This document shows positions 1,710 to 46,286 of a stretch of 64,000 nucleotides of DNA, in pieces. The notes beneath the pieces are model-generated. The model was given only the letters and a program-made list of their open reading frames with translations. It had not been told where the DNA came from and did not search any database. The stretch lies in NCBI GenBank assembly GCA_028583605.1, contig CM053332.1:248001-312000 (forward strand), read 5' to 3'. This stretch comes from Dastarcus helophoroides (Eukaryota > Arthropoda > Insecta > Coleoptera > Bothrideridae). How positions within the stretch are numbered: position 1 is the stretch's first letter; each line of letters begins with the position of its first letter. A program made the translations under genes and the position numbers.

Positions 1710-1754
1710 CACTGGACATCGATGTTTCGCTCTCATTTGAGCTCGTCAGCAGTG
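1710..1754 (-). ncRNA. Hammerhead ribozyme motif (type I), retroelement-derived
   Basis: On the minus strand the conserved core is intact: CTGACGA, a stem II of GCTC/GAGC with a six-base loop, GAAA, then a palindromic stem III (ACATCGATGT) followed by the cleavage-site C. Stem I closes perfectly as CACTG pairing with CAGTG. All core nucleotides of the CUGANGA/GAAA/NUH consensus are present, so self-cleavage is predicted. Such ribozymes are known in Penelope-like elements and retrozymes. No flanking element body was recognised, so this may be a fragment. The family role is established knowledge; activity here is inference. Confidence 0.82.
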
Positions 1755-20017: not shown

Positions 20018-20096
20018 AACATATTCAATTGACCAATTAAATGTTCTGTAATTAAACAGTTAAACGTGCTTAAAATTGAAAATATGTACAACCGCA

Positions 20097-20139
20097 ACCA
20101 TAGACTAGTTTCGGCCTTCCTTGGCCTCGTCAGCATGGT
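20097..20139 (-). ncRNA. Hammerhead ribozyme, repeat copy 1
   Basis: On the minus strand: stem I ACCATG/TATGGT (closing G-U), core CTGACGA, stem II GGCC/GGCC around the loop AAGGAA, GAAA, palindromic ACTAGT stem III and the cleavage-site C. Stem I extends outward as CCG/CGG and TACAA/TTGTA with internal loops (20086-20155), as in natural type I hammerheads whose loops interact. The very short stem III suggests that it works best as a dimer. Confidence 0.85.
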
Positions 20140-20560
20140 ACGGTGGTTGTATACACTTCCAATTTAAAGCCGTTAGTCAGTCGTATAAGTATCCAAGAGA
20201 GCAAACCTCCATTGGGTGACTTGTAACTGACTTTTAACTGTTTATTACGCAAACATTTTTGCTACATGCTAATTGAAGCATTACTCTGCTGAGATAATAA
20301 GCCTTGTATATACGAATATATACAAGTTTATTACGATGCAATTGAAATCCAATTTCATTAGAATCTAATGAAAATTAGACTGCAATTGCAAAGTTCACGT
20401 AGATGAGGCAAAGCTTGTATCACGGGTTGCATCGCAACACCCATAGATACAAACGTCCTCGGCGTGACTTTACTTTCATCTAGTTTTGACAAATGACCAA
20501 TTAAATGTTCTGTAATTAAACAGTTAAACGTGCTTAAAATTGAAAATATGTACAACCGCA

Positions 20561-20603
20561 ACCATAGACTAGTTTCGGCCTTCCTTGGCCTCGTCAGCAT
20601 GGT
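20561..20603 (-). ncRNA. Hammerhead ribozyme, repeat copy 2
   Basis: Same sequence as the motif 464 bases upstream, in the second direct repeat. A transcript crossing both copies would be cut at both sites and release a 464-nucleotide unit. Confidence 0.85.
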
Positions 20604-20817
20604 ACGGTGGTTGTATACACTTCCAATTTAAAGCCGTTAGTCAGTATCTATGGGTGGTGCGATGCAACCCGTGATACAAGCTTTGCCTCATCTACGTGAA
20701 CTTTGCAATTGCAGTCTAATTTTCATTAGATTCTAATGAAATTGGATTTCAATTGCATCGTAATAAACTTGTATATATTCGTATATACAAGGCTTATTAT
20801 CTCAGAACATATTCAAT

Positions 20818-21697: not shown

Positions 21698-22074
21698 AAG
21701 AAAAGAAAAAAAAATGAAAAGAGGAATATGCAAAAAACGAAAGAATGAAAAGGCCAATTTCAAAACATCAGAGGTCGGTAACTCAGTATGTCCACCATAC
21801 CAGAGGCGAAACTCTTCTGAATTGAAAATTGGTACAAAGGATAAGAAAGTTTAGTTCTGTCCAGAAGAGTTTCGCCTCTGGTATGGTGGACATACTGAGT
21901 TACCGCGCTCTTCTGTCTAAACTTTCTTATCCTTTGAACCAATTTTCAATTTAGAAGATTTTCGCTTCTGGTATGGTGGACATACTGAGTTACCGTGCTC
22001 TGATGTTTTGAAATTGGCCTTTTCATTCTTTCGTTTTTTGCATATTCCTCTTTTCATTTTTTTTTTCTTTTATT

Positions 22075-39590: not shown

Positions 39591-40987
39591 CTTAACTTAA
39601 ATTATTACGTAATGTCAAGCTGGGATATAGTAATCTTTAAAAAAGACAATACTTGTGAATATCTGCCCAATCCTTGGGCAATAAATTCACAAAAGAACAT
39701 GTATTTGTGGCCCAAGAAAGTACTGTTAAAACAGATTAATAAAATAAGGGATAATTGTATGAAACCAACATGTGACATTGAATATGATGAGTGGGCTGCC
39801 ACTTGTAAAGCCACAGTATATGAGCTGAGTCAGGCTCGTGAGCTCGCTGAAAAGGCAATGTACACATCGAGTTTGTGAGAAAACGATATCGATCAAAAGG
39901 AACTTGATGATGAAGGGAATTATGAAAGAGAAGTAAGTGAAGCATCCAATGATGAAATTTTAGCAGCTCCTTCTATAGTCAAGGCTAAACAATCGTCTAA
40001 AAAGTTTCCAAAAATAGTTTATCATCAGAATGCTGCTTCATCTTCTCAAATCCTAGCTCCAAATCGATTAAAAGGTAATTTTAAAAAATGTTTGTTAAGT
40101 TGATATTAAACGACATTGCTTAGCTTGTCACGTCATGAATAACAACTTGACTAATGATTCATTGGAAGCTTATTCTTCTGCAAATAATAAAAAAGAAGGT
40201 AATTTTAGTACAACGAAAAATACTGCCTTATTTTTTGTATATATTACGTGTTTTTACTGTGTTTTAGAACAAACTGAGATAATGAAGGAGCTAAAGAAGG
40301 TGACCAAAGCCTTGGCCGGTATAAAATATGATATTTTAGAAATGAAAAACGACATAACCCAAATAAATATCAAGTTAGATAGCTTAAGCCAGAATCAGAA
40401 TAAATTTGCACATGCAAGTTTTTTCAATTTTGATTTACCCCTAACTACAGAATTACAAGTAGATAAATTGGAAGAGAAAAATTGGAGATTCAACTAATAA
40501 AGATTTTCAAGAACTGGTAAGGTATTATGATTTGAAAAATACAAGGACTCCATTAATTCCTGTTTATAACACTTCAGGTAAACATCCTTTCTCATGTTGG
40601 TGGTATAACTGCGCGGAAGAATGTGCTTTTAATAATGAGGAAGTTGATGGGTCGCAAACTGAGCCTGCAATATTTGTCTCGTGGGAAAAAAGGAAAAAAA
40701 AATCTCCCAATTAAATTTATTTAAAGCTGGCATAGGTAATATTAATAATTTTTGCTTCAAAACATCATTTCATGAACTCATACATTTGTTTTTTAGAAGC
40801 GGTTAAAGTCAATTTTAATTCTACTGATTTGGAAATATACCAGTTTATTAGCACAGCATTAGCTACTGCAGGAGATAGGGATGGTGGACGGAAAATGAGA
40901 GAACTAGAAGGTTTGTTTGTTACTAAAATTTACAAATAATATTTTTAATTATGATTTCTTTCAGCTGAGAAAAATGATGATGAATGA
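39591..40987 (+). pseudogene. DUF4806-domain gene, copy A (three disruptions)
   Basis: Predicted exons: 39591-40074, 40124-40198, 40268-40516, 40578-40735, 40797-40910 and 40965-40987, all GT/AG with consistent phases. N-terminal motifs: SWDIVIFKKDNTCEYLP, MYLWP and an EWAATCKATVYELSQARELAEKA stretch in two parts, as in insect DUF4806 proteins. A linker and a helix (MKELKKVTKALAGIK) follow, then DUF4806 itself: FDLPLTTELQVD, HVGGITARKNVLLIMRKL, SRGKKGKK and LEIYQFISTALATAGDR. Defects: in-frame TGA at 39876-39878 with coding-like sequence continuing after it; an extra A near 40480 absent from copy B; and one surplus A in the A9 run at about 40693-40701. Function of the family is unknown. Confidence 0.72.
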
Positions 40988-44890: not shown

Positions 44891-46286
44891 CTTAACTTAA
44901 ATTATTACGTAATGTCAAGCTGGGATATAGTAATCTTTAAAAAAGACAATACTTGTGAATATCTGCCCAATCCTTGGGCAATAAATTCACAAAAGAACAT
45001 GTATTTGTGGCCCAAGAAAGTACTGTTAAAACAGATTAATAAAATAAGGGATAATTGTATGAAACCAACATGTGACATTGAATATGATGAGTGGGCTGCC
45101 ACTTGTAAAGCCACAGTATATGAGCTGAGTCAGGCTCGTGAGCTCGCTGAAAAGGCAATGTACACATCGAGTTTGTGAGAAAACGATATCGATCAAAAGG
45201 AACTTGATGATGAAGGGAATTATGAAAGAGAAGTAAGTGAAGCATCCAATGATGAAATTTTAGCAGCTCCTTCTATAGTCAAGGCTAAACAATCGTCTAA
45301 AAAGTTTCCAAAAATAGTTTATCATCAGAATGCTGCTTCATCTTCTCAAATCCTAGCTCCAAATCGATTAAAAGGTAATTTTAAAAAATGTTTGTTAAGT
45401 TGATATTAAACGACATTGCTTAGCTTGTCACGTCATGAATAACAACTTGACTAATGATTCATTGGAAGCTTATTCTTCTGCAAATAATAAAAAAGAAGGT
45501 AATTTTAGTACAACGAAAAATACTGCCTTATTTTTTGTATATATTACGTGTTTTTACTGTGTTTTAGAACAAACTGAGATAATGAAGGAGCTAAAGAAGG
45601 TGACCAAAGCCTTGGCCGGTATAAAATATGATATTTTAGAAATGAAAAACGACATAACCCAAATAAATATCAAGTTAGATAGCTTAAGCCAGAATCAGAA
45701 TAAATTTGCACATGCAAGTTTTTTCAATTTTGATTTACCCCTAACTACAGAATTACAAGTAGATGAATTGGAAGAGAAAATTGGAGATTCAACTAATAAA
45801 GATTTTCAAGAACTAGTAAGGTATTATGATTTGAAAAATACAAGGACTCCATTAATTCCTGTTTATAACACTTCAGGTAAACATCCTTTCTCATGTTGGT
45901 GGTATAACTGCGCGGAAGAATGTGCTTTTAATAATGAGGAAGTTGATGGGTCGCAAACTGAGCCTGCAATATTTGTCTCGTGGGAAAAAAGGAAAAAAAA
46001 ATCTCCCAATTAAATTTATTTAAAGCTGGCATAGGTAATATTAATAATTTTTGCTTCAAAACATCATTTCATGAACTCATACATTTGTTTTTTAGAAGCG
46101 GTTAAAGTCAATTTTAATTCTACTGATTTGGAAATATACCAGTTTATTAGCACAGCATTAGCTACTGCAGGAGATAGGGATGGTGGACGGAAAATGAGAG
46201 AACTAGAAGGTTTGTTTGTTACTAAAATTTACAAATAATATTTTTAATTATGATTTCTTTCAGCTGAGAAAAATGATGATGAATGA
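44891..46286 (+). pseudogene. DUF4806-domain gene, copy B (two disruptions)
   Basis: Exons 44891-45374, 45424-45498, 45568-45815, 45877-46034, 46096-46209 and 46264-46286. If the TGA at 45176-45178 were read through and the A9 tract were one base shorter, the exons from the second methionine would join to 359 residues with every junction in phase. That strongly supports the model. Unlike copy A, exon 4 is uninterrupted (ELQVDELEEKIGDSTNKDFQEL). The tail AEKNDDE ends in TGA. Known relatives are multi-copy insect proteins of unknown function. Either a recent pseudogene or a gene spoiled by assembly errors. Confidence 0.75.

What the first reader, a model, noticed from the sequence alone, without database searches (positions are those of the whole stretch)
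20018..20817. Small hammerhead-ribozyme retroelement with complete insertion structure
Seen directly: a perfect 12 bp target duplication, two direct 152 bp repeats 464 bp apart each carrying the same well-formed hammerhead, and a 162 bp inverted copy of the spacer. Known: Penelope-like elements and retrozymes carry type I hammerheads in tandem repeats, and metazoan retrozymes give small circular RNAs. Inference: transcription across both copies yields a self-cleaved 464-nucleotide RNA that can be circularised and reverse transcribed in trans. No protein is encoded. This could be an undescribed insect retrozyme family sitting just past the Ran poly(A) site, on the opposite strand.
Basis: partly seen in the sequence, partly recalled or inferred. 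Interest (0 to 1): 0.9.

Follow-up and report, generated by a model that had tools for sequence, protein, structure and literature searches.

The report
Ribozyme retroelement copied from RNA circles
A small non-coding jumping element carries a self-cutting RNA motif, and the structure of its inserted copies suggests that each was written into both strands of the target DNA by an enzyme running round one small RNA circle.

Summary
In detail: 12-bp target duplication, direct repeats 464 bp apart, 162-nt inverted copy, hammerhead on the minus strand. The element belongs to a high-copy family (1661 ribozyme cores within one mismatch, control 0). Of the 40 best-scoring loci, 28 have target duplications of 8-17 bp (mismatched control 0 of 40). 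The inverted copy recurs: 20 of these 28 inserts have two head-to-head arms, each with one outer end at site A and one at site B, about 200 nt apart on the RNA; the other 8 end at A only. In the predicted fold of a 466-nt circle, 20 of 20 B edges fall in one AGCA tetraloop and 22 of 28 A edges in one UCAAAAC loop. Both arms carry the same alleles: 0 of 179 comparisons differ against 30% when arms are re-paired (1 of 185 on another site set). The longest arm is 4.45 laps. Extension of both strands from internal RNA sites was shown in vitro for a Penelope-like element (PMC11167929), and this genome holds such elements with inverted two-end inserts. Best reading: a retrozyme whose RNA circle is copied into the genome by Penelope-like machinery. 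Not tested: circle, ribozyme activity, enzyme.

The parts
20018..20029 (.). left target site duplication AACATATTCAAT
20806..20817 (.). right target site duplication AACATATTCAAT
20030..20645 (-). A arm: 616 nt, 1.3 units of 464 nt; RNA sense is the minus strand, its 3' end (site A) abuts the left duplication
20644..20805 (+). B arm: 162-nt inverted copy; RNA sense on the plus strand, its 3' end (site B) abuts the right duplication; joined head-to-head to the A arm with a 2-nt overlap
20080..20152 (-). type I hammerhead, copy 1 (cut between 20103 and 20102; position from the recalled consensus)
20544..20616 (-). type I hammerhead, copy 2 (cut between 20567 and 20566; position from the recalled consensus)
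20483..20489 (-). site A hairpin loop (RNA UCAAAAC), internal copy; in the family 22 of 28 A edges fall in this loop
20287..20290 (-). site B tetraloop (RNA AGCA), internal copy; in the family 20 of 20 B edges fall in this loop

Best explanation
A non-coding retrozyme of 464-466 nt. The minus-strand transcript self-cleaves at its hammerheads and is ligated into a circle (inferred). A Penelope-like RT/GIY-YIG enzyme acting in trans cuts both target strands (inferred). One target 3' end starts cDNA in the UCAAAAC loop (A); the other, when used, starts in the AGCA loop (B) of the same circle. Both cDNAs can run for several laps and are joined head-to-head, leaving an 8-17 bp duplication. Seen in the sequences: the duplications, two recurrent outer ends, the two-arm structure, one monomer sequence per insert. 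Inferred: circularity, the enzyme, the loops (predicted fold), the order of steps.
For: Anatomy: 20 of 28 duplicated inserts have one A and one B outer end, none A+A or B+B; 8 of 8 one-arm inserts end at A. Edges: 20 of 20 B and 22 of 28 A in two hairpin loops; hairpin loops are 38 of 466 nt of that fold. From coordinates, opposite-strand ribozyme neighbours within 1.2 kb in the first 100 listed places are (-,+) in 8 of 8 pairs of this family (three of the eight are loci already in the 40) and 10 of 10 of family F3. One template: cross-arm differences 0 of 179 at 12 sites in 21 loci against mean 29.6%, minimum 16.9%, on re-pairing; variants in all copies of a locus 78 shared/13 private, in only some copies 25 shared/77 private. 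Longest arm 2076 nt, 4.45 laps (L024). Window unit as a circle: z -10.2 against 60 shuffles. Two Penelope-like families here (RVT_1 + GIY-YIG) include head-to-head inserts with two different 3' ends. PMC11167929 (parts 1-2 of 4 read): a Penelope-like enzyme cuts and extends both strands and starts internally at two sites, most commonly in an AC-rich stem loop.
Against: In PMC11167929 the start site did not differ between strands, the ribozyme cut was not needed in vitro and unprocessed RNA was the main template; here the A/B split is strict and a circle is inferred. That enzyme prefers AT-rich DNA and ATT; here TSDs are 72% AT against 70% in flanks, and ATT is the last triplet of the A-priming target strand in only 2 of 28. 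A and B are about 200 nt apart, the Penelope ends 31-40 nt, and in the three Penelope two-arm copies the longer ('tail') end is on the main arm, so the ends do not map one-to-one. No sequence shared with the Penelope ends was found beyond a CAAAA-like end. 12 of 40 loci have no duplication by my criteria; two of these have only a B end (L013, L026) and L047 has B without A. One search has one cross-arm difference (site 409, L040) in 185 comparisons. The ribozyme is below Rfam's threshold. A long transcript of a still homogeneous array would give the same homogeneity.
Confidence: 0.7

Rival explanations
1. Same enzyme, but the template is a long uncleaved tandem transcript, not a circle.
For: PMC11167929 reports unprocessed RNA as the dominant substrate in vitro; tandem arrays exist in the genome.
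Against: Variants present in only some copies of a locus are mostly private (77 of 102) and, read from the list, no two loci share two of them; arms agree. A mutated parent array would pass its heterogeneity on. A fresh homogeneous array would not, so this is not excluded.
Confidence: 0.18
2. A LINE mobilises the RNA with twin priming.
For: Duplications of 8-17 bp; inverted second arm; PMC4918200 (passage) likens 15-bp duplications of Nematostella repeats to those of LINEs.
Against: LINE twin priming uses variable second sites (recalled); here 20 of 20 B edges lie in one tetraloop. No poly(A) tail at the edges printed. No LINE of this genome was examined.
Confidence: 0.08
3. End-to-end template jumping between separate linear monomers.
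For: Known for some non-LTR elements (recalled).
Against: No indel near the ribozyme cut in 108 of 108 units, though only 0.26 would be expected by background, so this excludes only jumps that leave scars; units of an insert share alleles, which separate monomers from a mixed pool would not.
Confidence: 0.03
4. Satellite-type local duplication and inversion without retrotransposition.
For: Tandem units occur.
Against: Dispersed copies with target duplications (28 of 40, control 0 of 40) and locus-specific haplotypes.
Confidence: 0.01

Closest known systems
Metazoan non-LTR retrozymes (Cervera and de la Pena 2020, PMC7229834; results part 1 of 3, discussion and passages read)
   Same: type I hammerhead in tandem units of a few hundred bp, low GC, larger target duplications, strongly self-paired monomer RNA; insects are named there among hosts
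   Different: two head-to-head arms with fixed A and B ends; 'inverted' occurs 0 times in the main text of that paper
Penelope-like elements (PMC3846280, passages; PMC11167929, parts 1-2 of 4)
   Same: head-to-head inverted insert with two 3' ends (with and without 'tail'), short duplications, minimal hammerhead, internal initiation on both strands
   Different: no ORF, 464-466-nt unit, ends about 200 nt apart, tandem units of one sequence
Plant LTR retrozymes (PMC4918200, passages)
   Same: hammerhead-flanked monomer RNA, non-autonomous
   Different: type III hammerhead, 4-bp duplications, LTR structure; here type I and 8-17 bp
Schistosoma W-elements (PMC8490949, passages)
   Same: hammerhead-bearing tandem repeats, a duplication reported for one element
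   Different: described as satellite-like; no two-arm inserts in the passages seen

Membership tests
metazoan non-LTR retrozyme | type I hammerhead in each unit | tested here: met
   alignment to Hammerhead_HH9 and fold, conservation; below Rfam's gathering score
metazoan non-LTR retrozyme | short tandem units of about 150-450 bp, GC below 50% | tested here: met
   464-466 bp, just above the printed range; GC 0.37-0.38 for two units
metazoan non-LTR retrozyme | target duplications larger than 4 bp | tested here: met
   8-17 bp in 28 of 40 loci
metazoan non-LTR retrozyme | no protein coded | tested here: met
   longest listed ORF overlapping the element 80 aa, not searched for domains
metazoan non-LTR retrozyme | no LTR, PBS or PPT | not tested
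   no primer-site or polypurine search was made
metazoan non-LTR retrozyme | linear and circular RNA in vivo; self-cleavage | not testable with these tools
   no RNA reads, no bench
Penelope-like element | ORF with RT and GIY-YIG domains | tested here: not met
   no ORF above 80 aa: not a member
Penelope-like element | insert with inverted copies and two recurrent ends | tested here: met
   20 of 28 duplicated inserts A+B
Penelope-like element | reverse transcription starting internally in a stem loop | tested here: inconclusive
   edges coincide with predicted loops; the fold is a prediction
plant LTR retrozyme | type III hammerhead and 4-bp duplication | tested here: not met

The most novel reading that the evidence does not exclude
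The retrozyme circle is a two-landing-pad template: two loops of one multiloop receive the two strands of a cut target, one loop per strand, in a Penelope-like enzyme complex, so that a single RNA circle is copied from both target strands and in several laps, giving a palindromic tandem insert. The one-A-one-B rule would be the footprint of an asymmetric enzyme dimer, or of the first cDNA blocking site A.
Probability: 0.5. Interest if true: 0.85.

Novelty: new variant of a known kind. Interest (0 to 1): 0.72.

Why it matters
How animal retrozymes return to the genome is open: RNA circles have been shown (PMC7229834), but circular templates and Penelope-like enzymes are only proposed there. The inserts in this genome keep a record of start sites, strand use and number of templates, so the proposal can be tested, and they add something that the in vitro work did not show: the two target strands use different start sites.

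Tried and rejected
Rfam at gathering threshold: nothing in the window. Viral-contig scan for the exact core: 0. Penelope sequence sharing stretches with the element: only nested or neighbouring copies among the 12 Penelope loci (L054: a retrozyme in a P1 copy, B end, no clear duplication; L052 and L058: old relatives at 69-76% next to Penelope sequence). A search for the spread of ends of Penelope family P2 and one for the F3 element did not complete, so the Penelope two-arm sample is three copies: L050 (9-bp duplication), L052 (inverted end 8 nt past the usual short end, duplication doubtful), L065 (no convincing duplication). Target-site AT preference: not above flanks. Not held: PMC4209133, PMC5785218.

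Limits of samples. The 40 loci are the scored ones of 1896 first-look candidates, best matches to a 1.3-unit query, so long copies close to the window copy. The 100 places are the first listed, exact matches on C1, so mutated neighbours are missed and cluster sizes are understated. Dropped rows: units under 100 nt or below 90% identity; units below 96% or with 6 or more gaps (130 of 138 kept); units below 96%. TSD search allows one mismatch (used in L015 and L031); 72 seamless unit-to-unit passes, 3 not (L030, L037, L038). The unit folded includes four bases at the left edge that partly belong to the flank; the folds do not.

Full report
What is there. The stretch 20018-20817 is one insertion: a 12-bp target duplication, an A arm of 616 nt (1.3 units of 464 nt) and a head-to-head B arm of 162 nt. 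The hammerhead is on the minus strand, twice. Rfam at gathering threshold gives nothing; in relaxed mode Hammerhead_HH9 aligns over its whole model with 22.7 bits, E 0.0067. Stem III is the palindrome ACUAGU, as in minimal hammerheads thought to act as dimers (recalled).

Family. A search of its own genome (538.9 Mb, 50 contigs, unnamed) scored 40 of 1896 first-look candidates. The ribozyme core with at most one mismatch occurs at 1661 places (834+827), reversed control 0. A looser hammerhead pattern gives 4186, control 2, and shows two more families: F2, 5909 places at up to two mismatches, and F3, 1896 places. F3 also sits in the window at 1710-1754, minus strand. Stem II differs between the three but stays complementary.

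Insertion structure. I fetched the 40 loci. 28 of 40 have an 8-17 bp duplication, 17 of them 12-14 bp; with right flanks from another locus 0 of 40 pass. Of the 28, 20 have two arms, each with one A and one B outer end, and 8 have one arm ending at A. Of the 12 without duplication, read, nine end at A, two only at B (L013, L026), and L047 has B without A. Arm junctions lie at varied positions; overlaps are -6 to 11 nt in 17 of 20, and 32, 54 and 102 nt in L040, L029 and L027. An older copy in L026 (about 90% identical) has the same plan, B left and A right, with a 13-nt duplication carrying two mismatches, read. From coordinates, opposite-strand ribozyme neighbours within 1.2 kb are (-,+) in 8 of 8 pairs of this family, five of them outside the 40 loci (72 clusters: 54 with one core, 10 tandem, 8 with both strands), and in 10 of 10 of F3: RNA 3' ends point outward.

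One template. Copies within a locus differ by a median of 0.5% (opposite arms 0.4%), between loci by 1.5%. At 12 chosen sites 8 of 365 locus-sites are mixed within a locus against 157 on average, minimum 135, in 500 shuffles; one of 185 two-arm comparisons is discordant (site 409, L040). With sites chosen by allele frequency among loci, 0 of 179 comparisons between arms of 21 loci disagree, against 29.6% on average, minimum 16.9%, when arms are re-paired. Variants in every copy of a locus are mostly shared with other loci (78 of 91), those in only some copies mostly private (77 of 102). The longest arm is 2076 nt, 4.45 laps (L024). 108 of 108 units cross the ribozyme cut without an indel, where 0.26 would be expected at background rate, so this is weak evidence. 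A circle is the simplest template; a transcript of a still homogeneous array is not excluded.

Start sites. The window unit as an RNA-sense circle folds to -154.5 kcal/mol against -97.4 +/- 5.6 for 60 shuffles (z -10.2). In folds of six units from other loci the A and B hairpins recur, both in the multiloop away from the ribozyme. On the fold of one unit (L024), with edges extended as far as they match, 20 of 20 B edges fall in the tetraloop AGCA and 22 of 28 A edges in the loop UCAAAAC, the other six within six nt of it; hairpin loops make up 38 of 466 nt.

Penelope link. GIY-YIG matches are abundant (91 listed, 1070 first-look candidates, 150 scored). One ORF each of two families reads as RT plus GIY-YIG. 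Where a 3' end was seen, the long ('tail') end occurs in 9 of 10 P1 and 7 of 8 P2 main arms, the short end about 40 nt earlier in one each; three head-to-head copies (L050, L052, L065) have the long end on the main arm and a short end, in L052 8 nt off, on the inverted arm. P2 carries a minimal hammerhead, with ends 62 and 102 nt past its cut (L066); in the retrozyme A lies about 80 nt past the cut. PMC3846280 (passages) describes inverted, tailed inserts for Penelope elements. PMC11167929 (parts 1-2 of 4) shows for an Anolis element that both strands are cut and extended and that reverse transcription starts internally at two sites that define the tail, most commonly in an AC-rich stem loop. 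The A loop UCAAAAC is such a loop. Against this: no strand difference and no need for ribozyme cutting were seen there, and the AT and ATT preference is not visible here.

Known or new. Metazoan retrozymes and their RNA circles are known (PMC7229834, results part 1 of 3 and discussion read); that paper proposes circular templates and Penelope enzymes for mobilisation. I saw no report of two-arm retrozyme inserts in the searches, which cover open-licence PMC only. So: a new family of a known kind with an insert anatomy I found undescribed. The mechanism is inference from genome copies.

Noticed in passing
window 1710-1754, minus strand: A second, unrelated hammerhead (family F3; Rfam HH9 29.8 bits, E 3.7e-5, below the gathering score), one of 1896 places in the genome; opposite-strand neighbours in the first 100 places are (-,+) in 10 of 10 pairs. 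Short palindromic copies of its downstream end lie in L023 and L061.
   Followed up: partly
L019 4046, L032 5302: Family F2 hammerhead (5909 places in the genome). The L032 copy sits in an inverted repeat, and further downstream L032 shares AAATATTTCCAAACTGGGC with the F3 region of the window.
   Followed up: partly
window 21780-22000: Direct and inverted repeats around GTATGGTGGACATACTGAGTTACCG downstream of the element, another repeat family.
   Followed up: no
L054 1-1467: A retrozyme copy inserted in a Penelope P1 copy with a B end and no clear duplication.
   Followed up: partly
window about 45290-45330 and 39990-40030, minus strand: Two CTGATGA...GAAA stretches with identical flanks, so a repeated segment of the window; the ribozyme resemblance is probably chance.
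   Followed up: no
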